A DNA stretch of 64,000 nt, taken from the NCBI GenBank assembly GCA_022818135.1, contig JAFMSR010000010.1, positions 17,114,222 to 17,178,221 on the forward strand, written 5' to 3'. The translations under genes were made by a program, and so were the position numbers. Below the pieces are notes generated by a model. That model was not told the DNA's origin, did no database searches, and saw only the letters and a program-made list of their open reading frames with translations. Origin of the DNA: Saxidomus purpurata (taxonomy: Eukaryota > Mollusca > Bivalvia > Venerida > Veneridae). Shown piece after piece: positions 5,704 to 63,155 of this stretch; the stretch's first letter is position 1, and each line of letters opens with the position of its first letter.

Positions 5704-6460
5704 GAATAATTAGGGCGACTAATATGAGAATTATTATTCCAAATAATGTTTCCTGTTTAAATGTAAGATAGTTCCGAGTAATCTTTGTGACTTTTGTTCT
5801 ATGGCTCCAGAAACTGTTCAACACTTGTTTTGGGAGTGTGAAATAATCCAACAGTTTTGGGTGGAAATACATAAATACTTAACAATTAAAGGATATGAAA
5901 TTGCTCCATTGACATTTGAAACTATTTCTTTTGGTTTATTAGAGCACCAATTAGAAGGGGACAAATCAAATATCGCTAATTTCATTATTATTTTAGCAAA
6001 GTATTTTATATTTAAAAACAAATGCAACAAAACTTTACCTTCCATTGAAATGTTTGTGTACTATTTGAACAGTAAAATTAAGTTAGAACATGTAATAGCA
6101 ACGATGAGAAATAAGACTGGCATATTTAACCAAAAATGGAGGGCGTTTATGGCATAATACACGCTAAATACATAAACAAAACATATTTTCAAAAGCAGAA
6201 CATTTCGAACCTTTCGAGCTTTTCTAGCTCTTCTCTATCACTTCATATACTTTCTTTCTTTCTTCTTTCTCTTTATACTTTTCAATTATAAAAAAAATCC
6301 TTAAAGTATGTGAACCAACATTTCGGGTTTTAAAATATAGTAAATAGTTACCATGGATTATTTGTATGTTTGAATATTAGATAAGAATTGTAAACAAACT
6401 ATTTGAATGTATATGTACTGAAAGGAAATAAAAATGGTAAAAGCGAATAATTAGGGCGAC
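5704..6460 (+). mobile_element. 5'-truncated L1-type LINE with 16-bp target-site duplication
   Basis: GAATAATTAGGGCGAC occurs at 5704-5719 and again, identical over 16 bases, at 6445-6460. The 725 bp between them are a 5'-truncated retrotransposon: the end of the ORF2-like frame, then about 285 bp of 3' untranslated sequence ending in AAATAAAAATGGTAAAAGC. Perfect duplications with 5' truncation are the hallmark of target-primed reverse transcription. The undamaged duplication argues for a fairly recent insertion, although the coding part already has a frame break near its 5' end. Confidence 0.85.
5743..6157 (+). pseudogene. C-terminal fragment of L1-type ORF2 protein
   Basis: The frame reads LFKCKIVPSNLCDFCSM, then APETVQHLFWECEIIQQFW and runs to a TAA at 6155-6157. 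CxxC followed by H and C (NLCDFC...QHLFWEC) is the zinc-knuckle-like C-terminal motif of L1 ORF2 proteins, downstream of the reverse transcriptase. The ATG at 5801 is internal; coding continues upstream of it to a stop near 5740, beyond which the match shifts frame. Endonuclease and reverse transcriptase are absent, so this is a dead fragment. Confidence 0.8.
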
Positions 6461-13530: not shown

Positions 13531-16500
13531 CTACGTCCATGTCGAGACAGTTTTAGACAGAATTGGCATCTGGCAAGGTCTTCTGATGTGATTCTGAAAT
13601 ATATACATAGTATAGTATTTGTTTAGTAGAAGTACCTCTAAATTATCCTGACAAGCTATATAAACAAGACGTTCATGACACTTATGGAGTACCGAATGGA
13701 TACAGAGCTGTGAGTATACGTCACAGATGACATTATTAAATATTAAAGCATAGTCGTCATGGTGTTGTTTGTTGTTTGTATTCGCTTCATGGGAATGAGT
13801 ATTCTTTGTGTATATTGCTTAATTGTACTTGGAAAAAAGGGATAGGTAATTAGTTGGATTCAAATTTCGAGTCAAAGCTCTGTAGGCAGCAGCCAACTTG
13901 TATGACTTAAAGGGTCAGATGGTGTAGTCAGATATAATGTTCTAAAATAAACACGGCTTAATTATGCAAGCGACAGGTAATGTATTTATTTTGAACCATT
14001 TTACCTACAGTTTATAAAATGTAACACATGTCGTTAGGTTAATCATGGTTCGTGTACTGCATGTTTTCGAGATTGAAATATAGTGATAATTGTCACATAC
14101 TGAACTATCTTCAACTTTTGCTGAATTTCATACTGAACTTCTTTTAATATGGATGTATCTTAAAGAGGTATATAAAGCCTTTGATGACTAAGAAAATTGA
14201 ATAGCAGTGGGAGTCTGTGCTACAACACGGTTTGCAAAAGTATCATTCTCAGTTTGTTGATGTTTTGTTCGCAGTAGAAATTTGTAAGTCATATTAGCCT
14301 TCAAAGTAACAATTGTAATTTCAAGAAATACATTTAACAAGCTATCTAGCAAACATGAATCTGTATAACATTTTTATCTCTATCGATAACTGTGAACTTT
14401 TTTCTGTCGTAGTCTACTCGATATAAGTTATTTATAACGTGTTTTTCAAAGTATTTATTGTGTTTTGAGCATCTTTCTGCACCATAATGTAGCAATACAT
14501 TGGCTATGTAGAAAAGTAATATAAATGCAAAAAATCAACAAATGTTTATAGCTAGGTGCAAGAATTAAGACTGCACATACCTTCATAATTTCAAAATAAC
14601 TATCAACGCGGCAACATGTCCTGCAACGTGCTTCAAGTTTGTTCATATCAAACACAACAGCTCTGTCGGCAAAAAACTCCTCCTATGGCCAAAGAAAAGT
14701 ATTTCATATAATTCATGTAACTTTTAAGGGAGATTACCTTGGTTTCTTTAATTTAACTATACGAAAAGAAACAAAAAACACTTTTATCAGAGTATTGTTA
14801 TTCTACTAGGTTTACATGTGACTCTACTTCTGATAATCATCTTTAATCTGTAAAGAATCACCGATACCTTTCCATATCACATGATGACAACTCCTAAAAT
14901 GTACCCTGTGCACATTACAGAAATATTGCCTAGAAATATGTACACTGTGCACATTCTATGGAACTGTTACCTAGAAATATGTACGCAGTGCACAATCTAT
15001 GGAACTATTGGCCAGAAAAATGTTCGCTGTGCACGATATATGAAACTTTGACCAGAAATATGAATACTGTACACAATATATGGAACTATTGCCTAGAAAT
15101 ATGTACACTGCGCAGAATATATGGCAATATTACCAAGAAATATGTACACTGTGCACAATCTATTGAACTATTGCCTAGAAATATGTACACCGTGTACAGT
15201 CTATTGAACTATTGACTAGAAATATGTACACTGTGCACGATCTATGGAACGATTGACTAGAAATATGTACGCTGTTCACGATCTATGGAACTATTGACCA
15301 GAAAAATGTACGCAGTACACAATCTATGGAACTATTGGCCAGAAAAATGTTCGCTGTGCACAATATATGAAACTTTTGACTAGAAATATGAACACTGTAC
15401 ACAATCTATGGAACTATTGACCAGAAAAATGTACGCTGTTCACAATCTATTGAACTATTGCCTAGCAAAATGTACGCTGTACACAATCTATGGAACTATT
15501 GACTAGAAATATGTACACTATGGAAATAGTGTCTAAAATAGTGATTTGTTACTGCAGCAGCATTATTTGGTAATTTCAGGTTCATTTTATTGAAATTAGA
15601 AGTCTTTGTTGCATATTGTTTAAACATTTTTTTATTATTATTGCCACTGATTCAACTTAGCCATAACCAAATGGAATGGAATTTATTTGGTGAAGTGATC
15701 TTGTGTACATTGATCTTTATTCTAGACTAGACCTATATATCAAGAATAGTGGTCCCATTTTAACAATTAATACATTCTGGTCCTGTATACACTCTAAGAA
15801 CAATAATATTTGAGTAATCATCACTAAGTGTATATGGTTGCATGAGCGTGGTCCAGTCTGATTATTACGAGAGAGGAAAAGTGTGTATAGAGATAATTTA
15901 CCTGATATACACGTGATATACATTTTTTTAAACCTTGTTTATTCACGGGACGCCAGGTTTCTGAAGACCAGGACCCGGTTGTTCAACAGTTTAACGGGCT
16001 GTTAAGCTAATCGTCGATTAACTTTTGATTGAGACAAAAGTATTGGTAGGAAACACAAGTGGACTATTCTTATTTTGCTTCCTCATTCTCCTAAATGCAA
16101 GCATTATTTTTAGTAAATATTTCAAACTCCAGAAGTATTACCCTTAAAGTCAAGCGACTGTTAGCTTAACAGCCGGTTAAAGGTTCGAACAACTGGGTCC
16201 TGTATAGAGTGAGCATGGCAACATTATCTTGCTCATTTAATTTTGACTAGTTCAAATCAGTAGTGTGATAATGATTTTCCCTGACGATTTCGCGGTAAAA
16301 AAAATGCTACATTTGAACATTTAAACTTGGTTACAGTCTAGAAGATTAATGTATTTCTTGAGCAATCATTACCGAACTTTGACAGAATATACAAGATCTT
16401 AGACAATTGAGAATGCTGGCTAGACAAGACAAGACTGTTATTGTCCCTATTTTGCAAACGTTGTGATATTTGACATTGTTTACATTCTAGAAGACACAAA

Positions 16501-51244: not shown

Positions 51245-52892
51245 ATAATGATAGAATGTGTGTGAGGTAGCACTTGAAAGGAAATCTGTTATCTATGTAT
51301 AGATCAGAGAACTTTATCGACAACACAGTGAGAGAAAATATTCTTTTCACATGAAATATTGATACAAATGAGAGGTTGCTGGACTCCCGTAATTCGAAGA
51401 GAAATCACAGAAAATATTTACTTCTTCTGGAGATTAATGAAGAACTAGTTTGGTTAGACGGCTGCAGCCGGTATGCACACAGCTGCTTACTAGTACGGCC
51501 CTGTCATTAAAACAGTCTGCAGTCTCTGTCATAAGCTGACCTTTCCGAGTTTGCAAAAAATTAATTGCATTAAAACAACTAGAGATAGGATCTTTTCTTC
51601 TAACTAAAGTGCAAGACGGTTGCATAGCAGATAAATTTACATGACTAGCGTTAAACGAGACTTAATTTGACAGGTGTGTTAAATGTTCAGCGTCACAAAT
51701 GTAAAGTATATGCATCAAAATTAATTATTCTTGTAAAATATGAAAAGCAGCTTGTCAACTTGACCACATATTCATTTTTAAAGCTTGTTTACACGTGTTT
51801 ATACACTTATTTATTGCAATAAGTATACTAGCCTGAGAATCTTGTTTACATTTTCCACTTATATCTTATACGACAAAACACAGACTACCTTCGTCCACGG
51901 ATGGTCAGCTCAAAAAACTAAGAACACTAAGATAGCTCAGATTGTCATCAAAGATGTTTTTAAGTTAAGGAAAAATTAGCTTCCAATGGTATACGCTGAA
52001 CATCTCATATAACTGTACACACCCAAGGAACAATCATACAAACTAGCCGAATGTTTGTCCAAAGCATGCCTAATGACGATGTTCGAGTCAGACTGAGCTC
52101 GTTGTCGCCACGCCAGTTCTTGTCCCGTGTTATCGACCCGGATCTCATTTAAGGCTTTCTTTTAAAAGGTAACTGAACACGTGTGACTTAATGTTATTTA
52201 TTATAGACTTTTAAAGTTAACATGTAATCATTTTTATACTCATTTATTCATTCTCTGTTGCAAAAGAAGACAGTTATAACATTTTAGATTAATATCGCAC
52301 TTCACACTCGAATCAACCACGAGGAAAGAAGAAGAGCGATGGGCATACGTTATTTAGAGTCTTGCCGAGGGACACTATCAAATTAGTATGGGTGGGATTC
52401 GAACCCTTGACCAGCCGAGTCTGAGACGTATACGTGCATCCATTGCTTCAGACAAACAAATGCCCGAGACAAACTGACGGGCAAATATCAACCAAGTATA
52501 TGGGCATATTCATAACTGATTTCATATAAAAGGTGGGGAGGGGAGAGGGGGGGGCGCAGTTTGTTTTTTTTTTTTAATTTTTTAATTTGAAGTTTTTGTT
52601 CTAAAAACATTGGTAAATTGTTGTTTGACCATTTTCTGATAAAATAGTTCGGAGGTCGGTAGTAAAGAGTTAAGATCGGTCCTGAAACTAAAGACTTGCA
52701 TCGTTACTTTGACCTCATCAAGGTTTTGTTTGTTATATCTATATGGACACCGCGCACTTCACATCTTGATGCTCTGTCACGAAGACATACGTTTGGCATC
52801 GGTCCATAAATTTACAGTCCGCAATTTTTCTGGACTGGAAATAATATACTGCACATATTTTTTCCTAAGCAACTTTATATATTTAATTCCAG
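51245..52892. other. 5' flank or first introns of the proton-channel gene
   Basis: The proton-channel frame needs at least one upstream exon ending on a codon boundary, and none was identified here. A G-rich run (about 52535-52556) and a T run follow the tRNA-like relic. A minus frame at 51434-51625 contains FNDRAVLVSSCVHTGC, superficially like a TRAF zinc finger, but it lacks splice support. Confidence 0.35.
52380..52465 (-). repeat. tRNA-derived relic
   Basis: The minus strand contains AAGGGTTCGAATCCCACCC, a perfect B box with a good T stem (GGG/CCC), complement of about 52388-52407. The 5' half (GCAATGGATGCACGTATACG) has no convincing A box or D arm. A SINE or tRNA pseudogene is more likely than a working tRNA. 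Confidence 0.4.
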
Positions 52893-53023
52893 GGTCTTGT
52901 GAAAAAGACGATAGATTTTGCACGAGCGTACTCAGATAATGACTTAGACAGGACAGAAAGAGTTCTTGAGGCTGAACTCAGGCGGGAGAGCATCAGACCA
53001 CCACGTGATAAGAAAGTTGCCAG
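52893..53023 (+). CDS. HVCN1-like: proton channel exon, cytoplasmic N-terminal part
   Basis: Acceptor ATTTAATTCCAG, donor CAG|GTAATG, ends in phase 2. It encodes GLVKKTIDFARAYSDNDLDR then TERVLEAELRRESIRPPRDK, a charged stretch ahead of S1. The frame is closed by a stop just upstream in the intron (52884-52886), so an earlier exon must exist; it was not found. Confidence 0.75.
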
Positions 53024-56000
53024 GTAATGTGTTTTTAGAAATATTAGGACTTGCTAGAACGTGTCTCTGCTGCAAAGCGTAATTGACAAAAGCAAATTTA
53101 AAAGAAAATGATTCACAGAAAGAAAAGTTCCTGTAGTTTTTGTCCATAACGTTCCTTTTTGCAGCTAAAGGAATTATAACAGATACACATACGAGATAAA
53201 ATCATTCATTGTGATAGCATACTGTCTAATCCTTAGAATTTGACAGTCAACTTTGCTCTTAAAATTAGGAGCCATTAAACTGTATACAAAAATGACAATA
53301 CATTTAAAAGCAGTTGATGTTTCAAGCCAGAGACGGAAAATACCTGGGAGGTAAACGATGTTGTTTTACGCCCGTTCCAACCTTGTTCATTTTAATAGGC
53401 GGACAGTTTACCTAACAATCGTTCCGAGGTAGAACCAGTACTAGACTCCGATTCTCCGTAAGAAACTGCCAAAGAGACATGATCGGTAGCAAGGCGCGAA
53501 CCGGTGGCCCTCAATCTATGAGAGGTTACATTACTGATGTCAAATTTGAAATACACTCTAAGCCTCTAATTACTCGAACACGGAAGCGAATATATGGGAC
53601 GTAAACATCTCTTGACTTGGTTGTGTTGCTTTCAGGTTGCGGTTGAAGGGAGAGCGTATGTTACACAGTAAATATGTGTTGCTGGCGGTTGTAGTACTCA
53701 ACTTGATAGACTGTGCCTTAGTCCTCGGGGAACTTATTCTAGATATACATTTTATTAGAGGTAATTCTTATGATTATTCATTATAGATCATTATAAAGAG
53801 CATGTATGTACATGCCATATGACCTCCACTGTGTGAAACTGGTCGCTTTGACATTGGCAGTCTGTGTAATGAATGTTTACTAGTTAGTTAGTAAACTTAT
53901 GAAATGACATGGGTTCTAGGTAGGTACACAATCAGTATGGATGTTTGGTCATATATGGATCCTGGCCAAATTTTAGACCCGATTTATGGTTTCCAGCATG
54001 GCTTTTGTTAAGTTATTTTCGTTAGCATTGTAAATGTATTGAAACACGACTTATTCTTATGAGTCAGCGAATAGGATGCTGCAGTCTCGTAAACAAATAT
54101 GATAATCCAGAACTAGTGGGGCCCCCATCCACGTTATTGCAGTTGCATTCGTTTTCTGAATGCCAGTATTTAAACAGACCTTCAGCTCATTCAGAAATAG
54201 GAAATTGGGCATTCTGGGTCAAAATTGTTAAGTAGTACATTTCCCAGTGCTTCAGTTAGTGTTTTTGTCATAAGAATTCATATGTCAAATATGTTTATAT
54301 TTCAGATTTGACATCAGTAAATGACCTGTTTGATCATTTTGTTATTGATTTTCAGAGCTTCGGAACAAATCTGATGCGTCGTCACAGCTGTTTATTGACA
54401 CACTTCAGACGAGGTATCCAGAACACCTGTATGGACATAACATCGACAACATGGACTTACTTTATGCTCAACTTTATACTGCTCAATGTCAGTGGTCTGA
54501 CGAGTCTGTACATGGACATGGACGAGACACACGGGGGTTTAAATAATACGAACCCTCATAAACGAGGGACGCAGGTTGTGCCGCCGCTCAGTATTCAAAT
54601 GTCTGCTCAAGGACCTAGCTATACGATGAAAGAATCGTCAAATAATCGAACTAATTCGCATGAAATACAAAACCAAGTCGGCAGCTCTTGGAATCACACT
54701 GATCAGTCCAAAGGGAATCACACTGGTCGTTTCCATGGGGATCACCATGACGACCACCATCATCACGAGCATAGTATATGGGAACACGTGGCACATGGCA
54801 TGCATAAAGCCAGCATCACCATATTAGGAATACTTTTTGTTGAGGTAGGTATTGTCTGGTATCGATTAGTTCGATAGAATCTTCTACAGTATATTTTGAA
54901 TAGCTTTTGGTGACAAAACTTCTTTCAAGCGTACCTTGTAATAAGTACCATATGAATAAATTTTGAAGTTACTTGAAAATAATAGGTTGTGTTTGGAAAG
55001 TAGATGACATGTGGCATGAAATGAACAGTTGTTCTTTTTTTATTATTTAAAGCCGCTTTCGTCTTTTTCTGTTTCAGAACTTGTTTAAACTGATTTGCAT
55101 GGGAAGGGCATTCCTTATAAAGAAATTAGAGGTATGAACAGCCAATTTATATGTAAAACACATAGAGTCTTTTTTTCCAACATCATTGATTATTTTAGAA
55201 AGTTTAGAACAATATATGAAAATTCATCAAGGACAATCATGTTCAGCTTTAATCGCACAGCTGTAGAAACTCTAACCTCCCTGAACAACATCTCCCTAGC
55301 AACAACTTCCATAAAAAGACACACGTCTTCTTTCCCGTTGCGTCGATTATAAAAGGAACCAACCTCTCCAGAACAACACCTCTCTACAATGTACACATTT
55401 CTGTGTTCCAAAGGGTGTTCGCACCTGAGAGGTTGCAGTGAAGATGCTGTATCAAAAATAAAAGGTATACATGTACTTTGAGCGAAGAAACCCTACCAAG
55501 CATTAAACTTTGTGATTTCATAACACTGTTGTTTTTATCGGCAATAAGCATCCTTATTCATTCAAGCAGTTCACGTGAGCTGCACAGGTACCTTTAAAAA
55601 CTTCATTTCAGATTTTAACCCGTGCATGTTTGTACAAACCTTCGCTTAGTCGAACTTCCAGCAGTATGTAGATTTGTCATTGAGTTTATTTATAATAATG
55701 TTCGATCCCTCTGTCAGTTAATCAAAGACAACTATCTTTCGTAACATTGCAATTATCAACGTGTTTTAGCATCCAATATTCATGTACCTTTTAAAAACGC
55801 CGTCTATCGTCTGATTGTCGTTCTGATGCTCAGTTTTAAACCACTCTGGCCAATGACCTTCATGCTTTATAATCCACTAATAAATGATGAAACTACTGTA
55901 TGATAAATATCAGTACGTCATCTTGAAGCATGCATTTGTTGGATGGCCAAACATCACATCAGCATCGTACGGACTGCGTGTCAGCTCATGTATCATATGT

Positions 56001-58814
56001 GTGTATAATACATATATTTTTGTTGACAGTATAGTTTTACGTTTTATGTCATAACATGTAGGCACGGCTAACTTTGATTGATCTTTACTGCTACCTGTAT
56101 ATTTAATGTATTCAATTATGAGTTAACATACATTGTACACGTGTTCTATGTAATGAAGCTGTAGTCATGGCGCTTGAGTGGCATTACCAATTTATCTTAC
56201 ATTGTCATCATAGGTATTTGATGCCCTTGTTGTATTCATATCGTTTGTCGTCGACTTGGTATTGTTAAAAGGTCTGATGGAGTTCAAGGTCCAAGATGCC
56301 GTGTTCATTCTGACATTCCTTCTACCTTGGAGAGTCATCCGAGTTGTTAACAGTGAGTATCGTACCATGGTCATCGTTTTCCCTGTGCCTGAATGCAAAT
56401 TCACCAATCTCTTATGTTCACATAGTTCTATACGAAAGCATATGTGCCAATGACTGAAATTAAAATGGAAACATAGGTTCTGGTATTTAATGCCCATTAA
56501 GACAATGGTCTGAATCTCATATAAACAAAACAACAAAGTATTTCATGTACATACACTCAGTTACAAAAGAAAGTGTGCACTTCTTAATTTGAAATATTTC
56601 AATACATGTATTTAGCAGGCGTATCGGCTTCAATTTTCGCACACTATATCGCATGTGTATTTGTCATCGATCAATTGCAAAATCTAAAATGTTCGCCATA
56701 TATGTATGACATGTACGTAAACAGATCTCAATTTTGGTACCAATTATATAGGCTTTCAGAAAAGTAGTCGATGAAAAATCACAGAAAACAAAGTGCACAC
56801 TTTCTTTTGGAACTGAGTATATGATAACCATGGTCAGAGTCCTGTACACTAGTACTATGTTTTTTTTGAAATTTTTTCTCATGTGAATAGAAAACATTGT
56901 CATGGCCATCATTGTACACAATGCAATATCTTATGTACACAAATAGTTCTTCCATATTCTGTTTCTCTTGTACTTGAAATGAAACCATGGTCATGTACAA
57001 TGAAATCCATAGTAATGGTCTTTCTTGTATTGGTCATGATATTATGGCCTATTTATCTTGCAAATGAAACATGGTCAGGATACTTTTTACTGGGTATTGT
57101 CAAATTTCGAATGTATCATGTGTACGTAAAAAAACTAAAAATTGCAGTGACTTTCACAAATTAATCAAACAAATTTAAAAATGCTTTCCTTTCAAATCTC
57201 GTATCAACATTTTAACTTCTGTAACCATTAACCAACGGCTGTCATTTTTCAAATTATACCATGATAGTGTGGGTCCTTATTTTTCTTTTCAATATTTACA
57301 TCTTAAGCATCGATATCTAGACCCCTCAATAGACTGCACTTACTATATAGTATATACTCTTCCCCAGGTTTGATCGTGGCAGTGTTGGATCACGAACATT
57401 TCCGGCTGAAGATGCTATACCAGGAAAAGAAGGTTGTTACTGCTGAATTGAAACAGCTCAAGGCCAAGGAGAAAGGCTGGGATGTAAGAAAGTTTAGATT
57501 TAAGTTCATACCTATTACCGTATCTCCGGCAAACTTCGGACGTATTGAAATGATAAGGTGGTCCAGTTGACGCTGGTGTTGGGATAAGTTACTGGATAAT
57601 GAAGTTTTGTCCGTAAAATTAAGATTTCAATTATTGAACGTGTACGAATTTTACTCTCAAGCCGTTTGTTATTCTCGTACATCTTTACTCGGCAATGGCA
57701 ACACGTATTAAGTTTGATGATAGAAAATATTTCTGTTTAAAACGAAAACGTTGCAGATGTAATATACATTTGTATTTACATAGAAACAATGAATTGATAC
57801 AGTTTTTATCATGGTGTTTCTTTTCAGTTTCACTTAAAAAAGATTGAGAATTTCTGTGAAAGTGAAGGTATTCCAATATGGAAGATCAGACAGCACACAG
57901 GTTTGTACCAGATTTTATTCTTTCAGAAAATAGAATTGCTCTTCAGATGTATTTCATTATGGATTTAGCTTAAGTATTTTTGTCTATATTGTACATATTT
58001 CAAGATGCCATTCGTCATAATTATAGTCTGTATGATGGTTACCATCTTTTTTACACACAATCGGCGCCAGGGTGTATCTAGCGCCACAATGGAGATAATG
58101 TAATTTAATTAATCTTACTCTGTTGAACCATAACTATGAACTTTTTGATTGCACTTTTTAACATTTCTGCACTATTCATGTTTTGAATGTCTGATTTATG
58201 TACGCAAGACTTTTCTAAATGTTATTTATGTACTTCACATAACGTTACTATGACGTCGCAAACATTGTACGATGTCGTGTATCTTAAAATATTGTCTACA
58301 TTCTTCAGCAATGGGTAGGAAACAGTCGACAATCACATCAATGGCGTCCCTAGCACTGAACGGTTTTCTGCAAGGCATGGTGTTAAGTCCTTCAGACAAG
58401 ATGTTAATGGACAAGTCATTATCCCTGGCCGGGCGAGACATCCCTTGTCTAGGTCCAATAGATGAAAGTGACGACGCAGACAACGAATTTGTTGAGATTT
58501 TGCACAAAACAAATACAACCGACAGCGCTTTGTCGTACGTAACGTCAGAGGACCGTCAAAAGAACAACAAGGAGTCTTTATCATTGATATCTGTAGACCA
58601 CACAAATGGTGTCCGCCAAAATGCTCATGTTGATGTTGAACATGCGCATGCGTATCCAGAACATAGTATTATGAAGGCTGCTTCCAGAGCCACGATGAAA
58701 AGTGTCAGTTTTGAGCAAATAGAAAATAAACCATTGTTACACCGTCAAGATTCTTTTGAAGTGAAGGACATAAATGTCAATAATGATGACGAAAACTTTA
58801 AAGGCTGGAGATAG
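52893..58814 (+). CDS. HVCN1-like: voltage-gated proton channel, Hv3-like (5' end missing)
   Basis: Eight exons with matching phases: 52893-53023, 53636-53760, 54356-54844, 55078-55131, 56214-56352, 57368-57483, 57828-57900, 58309-58814; about 543 residues plus an unseen N-terminus. Residues are numbered from the first exon. S1 (57-84) IDCALVLGELILD keeps the selectivity Asp (D69; human D112). S2 (237-256) SITILGILFVENLFK keeps Glu and Lys (E248, K252) and the Zn-site His before it (H235). S3 (267-284) FDALVVFISFVVDLV keeps both Asp (D269, D280). S4 reads TFLLPWRVIRVVN: second and third arginines are present (R306, R309) but the first is Leu (L303). A coiled-coil-like segment follows (EHFRLKMLYQEKKVV), then a 170-residue cytoplasmic tail. 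Such channels pass protons across the plasma membrane with no separate pore domain. The S1-S2 loop is about 155 residues and has one frame break. Human numbering and family alignment are from memory. Confidence 0.88.
53636..53760 (+). CDS. HVCN1-like: proton channel exon, S1 helix
   Basis: Acceptor TTGCTTTCAG, donor G|GTAATT, ends in phase 1. It encodes RLKGERMLHSKYVLLAVVV then LNLIDCALVLGELILDIHFI-R. D69, E76 and D80 align with human D112, E119 and D123, the acidic line of the S1 proton path. Confidence 0.88.
54356..54844 (+). CDS. HVCN1-like: proton channel exon, long S1-S2 loop and start of S2
   Basis: Using acceptor TTGATTTTCAG, phase 1 continues as ELRNKSDASSQLFIDTLQTR, YPEHLYGHNIDNMDLLYAQL. 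This frame stops at about 54550. The next frame (one base over) carries GLNNTNPHKRG, four N-glycosylation sequons (NNT, NRT, NHT, NHT), the His-rich HGDHHDDHHHHEHSIWEHV and then S2. One surplus base, for example in the G run at 54533-54537, would explain it. A 67-base mini-intron (54508-54574) is an alternative. A second possible acceptor at 54305 gives one open frame for the whole exon, but its first part looks less protein-like. Donor GAG|GTAGGT. Confidence 0.75.
55078..55131 (+). CDS. HVCN1-like: proton channel exon, end of S2
   Basis: Acceptor TTCTGTTTCAG, donor GAG|GTATGA, phase 0 on both sides. It encodes NLFKLICMGRAFLIKKLE; K252 aligns with human K157. It is the intracellular end of S2 and the S2-S3 loop. 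Confidence 0.85.
56214..56352 (+). CDS. HVCN1-like: proton channel exon, S3 and voltage-sensing S4
   Basis: Acceptor GTCATCATAG, donor A|GTGAGT. It encodes VFDALVVFISFVVDLVLLK, then GLMEFKVQDAVFILTFLLP and WRVIRVVN. The S4 pattern is L-x-x-R-x-x-R where human Hv1 has R-x-x-R-x-x-R. The S3-S4 loop lacks the human Zn-binding His193 equivalent. Confidence 0.9.
56554..56819. mobile_element. Tc1/mariner-type MITE, copy 2, in a proton-channel intron
   Basis: The ends CACTCAGTTACAAAAGAAAG and CTTTCTTTTGGAACTGAGTA are inverted, with TA on each side (56552-56553, 56820-56821). It shares most of its 266 bp with the copy at 39959-40193 and sits between the S4 and coiled-coil exons, so it is spliced out. 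Confidence 0.82.
57368..57483 (+). CDS. HVCN1-like: proton channel exon, S4 exit and coiled coil
   Basis: Acceptor CTTCCCCAG, donor GAT|GTAAGA. It encodes LIVAVLDHEHFRLKMLYQEK then KVVTAELKQLKAKEKGWD, where Hv1 proteins enter the coiled coil that makes them dimers. Heptad-like leucine spacing is present but the helix is short. Confidence 0.85.
57828..57900 (+). CDS. HVCN1-like: proton channel exon, post-coil segment
   Basis: Acceptor TTTCTTTTCAG, donor CAG|GTTTGT. It encodes FHLKKIENFCESEGIPIWKI-RQHT, an amphipathic cytoplasmic stretch not present in mammalian Hv1. Phase 1 at the end agrees with the last exon. Confidence 0.75.
58309..58814 (+). CDS. HVCN1-like: proton channel last exon, C-terminal tail
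   Basis: Acceptor CATTCTTCAG. The frame adds 167 residues and ends in TAG at 58812-58814. It starts MGRKQSTITSMASLALNGFL and is rich in Ser, Asp and Asn with no membrane segment: a long, probably disordered cytosolic tail. The ATG at 58311 is internal, not a start. Confidence 0.8.
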
Positions 58815-58869: not shown

Positions 58870-60300
58870 TGCTTGAGTATATTAGCAAAGATTTACTATT
58901 ACAAATCGAATTTAGAATTAATGAGTCGTTATATAAAATTTAACAAGAGCTTTCACTAATGGCCTAAAGCTTCAAATAGAGTAATACACAAGTGCGCATT
59001 GAGAGTTTATGCTTTTTTTTTCATTTTGAAACTACATGTATGTAGTATTTTAAGTTTCATTATCATTGTAGCCATATTTTTAAAACATCGAGCACAGATT
59101 CAGTCCATGTTGCAATGAGTTTTTAAATCACGATATATTTAGGAAATAGATTTCACTTTTGAGTGATATACCTTCAGATTACTACGCATTTACACTCCAC
59201 ACAGTGATATAGTAACCAGTATATCACTCAAAATAGAAATCTATTTCCTAAATATAAATCAAACTAGGATTAAACTAAAATTTCTCAACCGATGTCATAT
59301 AAATATGTCATGCAAATCCTTCTGTTCGTGCAGATCAAGTCCAGGAAGTTTTAGATATGCGTTGAAAGCTTCGTTTGTAAGTCAATAAACGAACAGAAGC
59401 ACTGATCGTATATTTATGTGTGTAGATATATTAAGACTTTAGTTGATAATTCTATTCATAAGTCGGACATATACGACCTCTGGCCTGAAGCAAGGTAACA
59501 AAACAACTATACACAGAGTGGGGCAATCACAAACATTTGACTATGCATACAATAGTTTAGGATGTGAACAAACGTGTCTTGTTGTCTTCAGATTCACTGA
59601 AAGTTTTCAGTGATACCTTTGTAAGAACCGCGCGCATGTTTCATTCATGATCAAAGCACATTGTTATTTTTTGTATTTTTATAACTGTTATATTTTAACA
59701 TATTCATTGTTTATATGCATTACATTTTTACAGAAATTTTCATTGAAGAGTTCACTGATTCAGTTGTTACTTAGTTTTTTGTATCCAGCAGAAATGAAAT
59801 AAATGATGACTTACTGTCTAGTTCTTTGGTTACTTACTTCTGTCAGAATCGTGATTCATTCTTTTGTACTTTATGAACAAACCCTTTTCATCTATGGTTT
59901 AATTAAGTACAATTTTGTTTTAAAATGTATATGTACAATATTGCATACTGATCTCGAATTTAAGATATAAATACTAACAAATGTTATGTTTAAAACATCT
60001 AGAAGTAAAACTTAAAAGCCTTGCAAGCCACTCCAAACTTAAACTTGTAACAAGATATGTTAAAATCTAGTTTGAAGTGAATTTAAACTATGAATGTCGG
60101 GAACCGCCTGTCCGCTCATCACATCATATACGATGTAAAGCAATGACCATTGCTGTTTTAAATAGGAACAGAAAAAAAACGTTATGTCTAATAAGCTTTG
60201 GTAATCTTGGAGAAATCTATCGAATAGTGCATGTATATTTTGTGTGAAATGACAATACCCTATCGAAACACCTTGTCAAAAGTTGTTGATGTTAAAATTT
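58870..60300. other. 3' flank with hairpin
   Basis: It may include the proton-channel 3' untranslated region. It contains the inverted repeat at 59127-59262 and a short inverted pair CTTCTGTTCGT/ACGAACAGAAG (about 59328 and 59388). No further gene is seen. Confidence 0.4.
59127..59262. repeat. inverted repeat, arms about 38 bp
   Basis: TATTTAGGAAATAGATTTC..TTTTGAGTGATATAC (59133-59171) is matched inverted by GTATATCACTCAAAA..GAAATCTATTTCCTAAATA (59219-59257) around a 47-base spacer. Probably a small foldback element. Confidence 0.75.

Positions 60301-63003: not shown

Positions 63004-63039
<36 letters not shown>

Positions 63040-63102: not shown

Positions 63103-63155
<53 letters not shown>

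What the first reader, a model, noticed from the sequence alone, without database searches (positions are those of the whole stretch)
56214..56352. Proton channel whose first S4 arginine is leucine (Hv3 type)
Seen: S4 reads FLLPWRVIRVVN, so the human R205 position is Leu while R208 and R211 equivalents stay, and D112, E153, K157, D174 and D185 equivalents are all conserved. Known (from memory): Aplysia has three proton channels, and AcHV3, which lacks the first S4 arginine, shows proton leak and weak voltage dependence. Inference: this is a bivalve Hv3 orthologue, which would make the leak-type paralogue older than gastropods. It could serve proton entry rather than extrusion, for example in shell-forming or acid-secreting epithelia.
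Basis: partly seen in the sequence, partly recalled or inferred. Interest (0 to 1): 0.85.

Follow-up and report, generated by a model that had tools for sequence, protein, structure and literature searches.

The report
Clam leak-type proton channel gene (HV3)
This is a bivalve member of an already described mollusc family of unusual proton channels (HV3) that lack the first voltage-sensing arginine; the family also shares changes in the channel's water-tight seal that may help explain why it leaks acid.

Summary
Exon 56214-56352 reads ...ILTFLLPWRVIRVVN: the human R205 position is Leu and the other named residues are kept. It is the fifth of eight exons placed in a long Hv-type gene (52893-58814; first coding exon not found). 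It is not an isolated R-to-L change: of 87 relatives fetched, 79 have a readable S4, each with L, V or I then Pro there. A tree splits 40 such rows from 29 conventional Hv rows with full support and pairs the window gene with Mactra. This HV3 family, its presence in bivalves and its origin before gastropods are already in print (PMC10377628), so the headline is not new. Additions: (1) ten xPWR loci found in this genome, all on one chromosome-size contig, and one conventional Hv on another; (2) in the hydrophobic gasket HV3 rows have Cys/Asn/Thr for V109 and mostly Leu/Ile/Val for F150, while 119 of 119 aligned conventional rows keep V and F, so leak may come from the gasket as well as S4; (3) a one-base frameshift at a G5 run in the S1-S2 exon. 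Leak is inferred, not shown.

The parts
52893..53023 (+). N-terminal cytosolic exon (GLVKKTIDFARAYSDNDLDRTERVLEAELRRESIRPPRDKKVA)
   Evidence: tblastn with Mactra P0002, 58% over 45 residues, E 2e-10; splice sites
53636..53760 (+). S1 exon, D112 and E119 equivalents; gasket V109 position is Asn
   Evidence: 93% identical to Mactra over 42 residues; residue table
54356..54844 (+). S1-S2 extracellular loop (His-rich) and first half of S2 with H140 and E153 equivalents; gasket F150 position is Leu; frameshift inside
54533..54537 (+). GGGGG run where the exon changes frame (upstream frame stops at TAA 54541-54543)
   Evidence: relative P0059 aligns to both frames with the switch here; P0061 and P0063 as printed also hold this exon in one frame; only copy of the exon found in the assembly
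55078..55131 (+). second half of S2, K157 equivalent, up to E171
56214..56352 (+). S3-S4 exon, D174 and D185 equivalents, LPWRVIR voltage-sensor motif (the finding)
57368..57483 (+). end of S4 running into a long helix, presumed coiled coil
   Evidence: 85% identical to Mactra over 39 residues; one continuous helix 279-350 in the Mactra model; coiled coil itself not computed
57828..57900 (+). cytosolic exon FHLKKIENFCESEGIPIWKIRQHT
   Evidence: 78% identical to Mactra over 27 residues
58309..58814 (+). last coding exon, AMGRKQSTITSMASLALNGFLQGMVLSPSDK... to stop
   Evidence: 58% identical to Mactra over the aligned stretch; ORF

Best explanation
This is a venerid-like bivalve gene of the known unconventional HV3 family of voltage-sensor-domain proton channels. 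Shown: S1-S4 with the D112 proton filter; R2 and R3 kept, R1 replaced by Leu and followed by Pro; an extracellular S1-S2 loop of about 150 residues (counted over two frames); and long cytosolic ends. Inferred: it is a proton-selective pore that dimerises through the helix continuing S4, and it closes poorly. With R1 gone there is no arginine to hold D112 at rest, and two of the hydrophobic gasket residues are changed (V109 to Asn, F150 to Leu). Water and protons could then cross the resting channel, giving a weakly voltage-dependent proton leak like that of Aplysia AcHV3.
For: Family: searches (63 proteins; 25, one shared) gave 87 different relatives; S4 readable in 79 of 87: LPWR 60, VPWR 16, IPWR 2, LPWG 1. 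These were found by similarity to an xPWR query, so the tree is the fairer test: 69 rows, 40 xPWR against 29 RxWR, support 100/100; window with Mactra 100/98. The split stays at 100 in a 60-row quick tree with the four trait columns masked. Long loop: median 120 residues in the 50 of 87 HV3 proteins where it could be measured, 17 in 85 of 120 conventional. Function by analogy: AcHV3 with LPWRxxR leaks and has shallow gating (PMC10377628 passages); human R205W leaks and loses the R1-D112 contact in simulation (PMC11853527 passages). Gasket: C/N/T at 109 in 52 of 52 HV3 rows with a residue there (69 aligned, 17 gaps) and L/I/V at 150 in 63 of 66 (3 gaps); V and F in 119 of 119 conventional rows. 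Species hint: its conventional Hv exon is 92% identical to Mercenaria and 90% to Ruditapes.
Against: No current was measured for any bivalve HV3 protein here. The assembled gene is frameshifted in the loop exon, so this copy might be a null allele. The first coding exon was not found. The HV3 changes sit on one stem branch, so their link to leak is correlative. AcHV3's own gasket residues were not seen. Three of 66 HV3 rows have Y, G or F at 150. Pfam gave no family for the spliced window query, and Foldseek of the Mactra model gave no match at E 0.001 or better.
Confidence: 0.78

Rival explanations
1. An ordinary Hv1 with an isolated R-to-L change.
Against: 79 of 79 readable relatives (of 87) share L/V/I-P-W; separated from 29 conventional rows with 100/100 support; the genome has a separate conventional RLWRVTR gene on C7.
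Confidence: 0.02
2. A decaying pseudogene of the HV3 family, broken by the frameshift in the S1-S2 exon.
For: Frame 0 ends at TAA 54541 and the downstream half is in another frame; relatives and five own-genome paralogues show this exon in one frame; no second copy of the exon was found in the assembly.
Against: The other seven exons placed are open with usable splice sites; branch length 0.12 against 0.10 for its sister Mactra, no marked acceleration; the shift lies in a G homopolymer, a usual place for assembly error (general knowledge).
Confidence: 0.12
3. A voltage sensor that no longer conducts protons and serves as a sensor or scaffold.
For: R1 lost, gasket altered, large extra domains; PMC10377628 says HV3 members were at first suspected of having lost channel function.
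Against: D112 in 53 of 53 HV3 rows with a residue there (69 aligned); AcHV3 conducts protons.
Confidence: 0.1

Closest known systems
AcHV3 of Aplysia californica and the unconventional molluscan HV3 family (PMC10377628, passages seen; Chaves et al. 2023 FEBS J, not held)
   Same: xPWRxxR motif, long S1-S2 loop, large cytosolic domains, D112 kept
   Different: Belongs to a subgroup with Mactra, Mya and Dreissena; one-to-one orthology with AcHV3 not tested; current not measured
Conventional HV1 / AcHV1 (RxWRxxR)
   Same: D112, E119, H140, E153, K157, D174, D185, R208, R211
   Different: R1 and the following Leu become Leu-Pro; V109 to Asn, F150 to Leu; loop about 150 residues against a median of 17 (14-22 in 85 proteins); long cytosolic ends
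Human Hv1 R205W (PMC11853527, passages seen) and hydrophobic gasket mutants (Banh 2019, not held; known from citations and recall)
   Same: Loss of R1 or of gasket hydrophobicity, with closed-state proton leak
   Different: Those are engineered or somatic changes in a conventional channel; here the combination is natural and family-wide in the sample
Ci-VSP voltage sensor (4g7v)

Membership tests
HV3 (unconventional molluscan proton channel) | xPWRxxR voltage-sensor motif | tested here: met
   LPWRVIR at 56214-56352
[quoted passage not shown]
   in 54356-54844, about 150 residues over two frames; 120 median in 50 relatives against 17 in 85 conventional
HV3 (unconventional molluscan proton channel) | large intracellular domains | tested here: met
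   exons 52893-53023 and 57368-58814; relatives mostly 350-540 aa
HV3 (unconventional molluscan proton channel) | S1 aspartate (D112) selectivity filter | tested here: met
HV3 (unconventional molluscan proton channel) | groups with HV3 and not with conventional Hv | tested here: met
   100/100; AcHV3 itself not in the tree
HV3 (unconventional molluscan proton channel) | proton-selective current with closed-state leak (as AcHV3) | not testable with these tools
   needs patch clamp
one-to-one orthologue of AcHV3 | sister to AcHV3 in a tree of all paralogues | not tested
   no protein named as AcHV3 was among those listed
conventional HV1/HV2/HV4 | RxWRxxR/K motif | tested here: not met
   L at R1
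conventional HV1/HV2/HV4 | short protein (200-250 aa) with short S1-S2 loop | tested here: not met

The most novel reading that the evidence does not exclude
HV3 channels are natural hydrophobic-gasket mutants. On one stem branch the family lost V109 (now C, N or T), F150 (now L, I or V) and R1, and gained the S4 proline. The resting leak is then a built-in, conserved property of a whole mollusc channel class, kept through several duplications on one chromosome, and is caused jointly by the opened gasket and the missing R1. The passages I saw tie the leak to R1 loss; one (PMC10377628) draws the parallel with gasket mutants but, in what I saw, names no gasket residue of HV3. The family would be dedicated acid-influx or pH-shunt channels.
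Probability: 0.45. Interest if true: 0.55.

Novelty: new member of a known kind. Interest (0 to 1): 0.36.

Why it matters
The window gene itself only adds one more bivalve HV3 to a family already described. What may be useful is the gasket signature, which gives a direct, cheap test of why HV3 channels leak. The spread of ten loci on one chromosome-size contig offers a system for asking why bivalves keep so many leak-type proton channels, for example in calcification or gut acid handling.

Full report
Observation. The exon 56214-56352 on the + strand reads VFDALVVFISFVVDLVLLKGLMEFKVQDAVFILTFLLPWRVIRVVN. In an alignment with human Hv1 the window has L at 205, P at 206, R at 208 and 211, and D112, E119, H140, E153, K157, E171, D174 and D185 are kept. 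The S1-S4 exons match solved human Hv1 5oqk at E 1.8e-14.

Gene. tblastn with relatives and splice signals place eight exons between 52893 and 58814, the S3-S4 exon being the fifth. The first coding exon was not found. The loop exon 54356-54844 is read in one frame up to the GGGGG run at 54533-54537 and in another after it. The relatives P0059, P0061 and P0063, from unnamed sources, hold this exon in one frame as printed; P0059 aligns to both frames of the window and the switch falls at the run; P0063 was read by eye, not aligned. Five own-genome paralogues (10.524, 10.537, 22.40, 40.32 and 40.63 Mb) also show the loop exon as one tblastn frame. No second copy of the exon was found in the assembly, so an assembly error and a real shift cannot be told apart here. 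Seven other open exons and a branch length of 0.12 against 0.10 in Mactra favour error or a young change.

Family. Searches returned 87 different relatives; S4 could be read in 79 of 87: LPWR 60, VPWR 16, IPWR 2, LPWG 1. The closest is Mactra antiquata P0002, 66% over the whole query. In a careful tree of 69 rows (40 xPWR, 29 RxWR) the two classes separate with 100/100; the window groups with Mactra (100/98), then with Mya and Dreissena (100/98), then with an unnamed row (100/98). Another xPWR group holds octopus, gastropod and bivalve genes including the own-genome 40.32 Mb gene (97/95), and the large group with the window also holds two gastropod rows (93/85, not starred), so more than one HV3 lineage is probably older than the split of these classes. 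The quick tree agrees on the window with Mactra, Mya and Dreissena; it also adds unionids (97), which one search leaves unresolved.

Own genome. G000 has 1.135 Gb in 4232 contigs; the window is C10:17114222-17178221. A search with the window VSD (E <= 1) gave 27 exon matches, which I grouped by position into ten xPWR loci, all on C10 (9.39, 10.524, 10.537, 11.14, 11.25, 17.17 = window, 22.40, 36.59, 40.32 and 40.63 Mb), and one conventional gene on C7. The 40.32 and 40.63 Mb loci are inverted and about 98% identical over some 9 kb, so they may be a recent duplication or an assembly duplicate. A search with the conventional exon found that gene on C7 at E 1.1e-101; the other nine matches, E 1.9e-4 to 0.88, lie on C10 (eight) and C12 (one; not looked into). 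A conventional channel too far diverged for this search would be missed, so the counts are lower bounds. Whether each locus is a working gene was not tested; several exons were not found in some loci. The conventional exon is 92% identical to Mercenaria and 90% to Ruditapes, hence 'venerid-like'.

Known or not. PMC10377628 (passages) states that unconventional HV3 channels with xPWRxxR, a very large S1-S2 loop and large intracellular domains form a big mollusc family with up to eight members per bivalve species, that the S4 proline is also in brachiopods and phoronids, and that AcHV3 leaks and gates with about 60 mV per e-fold. That text gives leucine at R1 in AcHV3 (elsewhere it says lysine for HV3, apparently a slip); in the present sample Val and Ile also occur (18 of 79).

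Gasket. PMC11853527 (passages) defines the gasket as V109, F150 and two S3 valines; PMC10377628 calls the S2 Phe conserved in Hv channels; an insect channel also has V and F in its gasket (PMC8804609 passage). In the joint alignment (69 of 87 HV3 proteins and 119 of the 120 conventional proteins listed, which had 199 hits; rows of 165 aa or more) position 109 is V in 119 of 119 conventional rows and C 27, N 23, T 2 in the 52 HV3 rows with a residue there (17 gaps); position 150 is F in 119 of 119 conventional rows and L 50, I 9, V 4 in 63 of 66 HV3 rows (exceptions P0060, P0066, P0068; 3 gaps). A separate motif-based count at 109 gave C 27, N 24, T 4 in 55 of 87. In the clam genome the S1 exon was found in eight of the ten xPWR loci, with N in six and C in two, and the conventional gene has V and F, read by eye from the printed exons. 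On a quick tree of 60 proteins with the four trait columns masked the split stays (100) and the least number of changes is four at 109, three at 150, four at 205 and one at 206: one set of changes on the stem, then swaps among C, N and T at 109 with no Val in any HV3 row of the sample.

Mechanism. Shown by others: human R205W leaks, with R2 reaching D112 across the gasket in simulations (PMC11853527); AcHV3 leaks; gasket mutants leak (Banh 2019 as cited there). Inferred here: the window channel has lost R1 and has a more polar gasket, so its resting state should pass protons, with weak voltage dependence. The Mactra model (mean pLDDT 65.9, VSD blocks mostly 78-93) keeps S4 as one long helix (279-350) into the cytosol despite the proline, in line with a coiled-coil dimer, which was not modelled; loop 149-210 and the tail after 379 are low confidence. 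The His-rich loop (15 His in the 102 residues encoded after the run) may bind Zn2+ or sense outside pH; this is a guess.

Verdict. Real, correctly read, correctly placed in HV3; a new member of a known kind. The useful additions are the gasket signature, the one-contig set of paralogues and the frameshift.

Noticed in passing
54533-54537: One-base frameshift at a G5 run inside the S1-S2 exon of the channel gene; relatives hold the exon in one frame.
   Followed up: yes
L043 (C10:40320000-40329900) and L044 (C10:40631900-40641800): Two HV3 loci in inverted orientation about 300 kb apart, about 98% identical over some 9 kb.
   Followed up: partly
C10 of the own genome, 9.39-40.64 Mb: All ten xPWR proton channel loci found lie on one chromosome-size contig, the conventional one on C7.
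   Followed up: partly
P0018 (Mytilus coruscus): S4 reads LPWGVIR, so R2, said to be fully conserved in Hv channels (PMC10377628), is Gly; could be a gene-model or sequence error.
   Followed up: no
P0026, P0029, P0030 (octopus, argonaut HV3): The E153 position is Gly in these cephalopod HV3 proteins.
   Followed up: no
59134-59256: Hairpin of two 38-nt arms, 95% complementary, 47 nt apart, downstream of the stop codon; MITE-like.
   Followed up: no
52394-52406: Exact GGGATTCGAACCC, a tRNA T-loop-like word; with up to one mismatch 0.02 expected by chance; ARAGORN finds no tRNA; possibly a SINE relic.
   Followed up: no
63004-63039 and 63103-63154: Two pure G runs of 36 and 52 bases.
   Followed up: no
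5747-6157: ORF with a sub-threshold zf-RVT match, probably a retroelement relic.
   Followed up: no
14899-15519: Tandem array of a 41-bp unit, about 15 copies.
   Followed up: no
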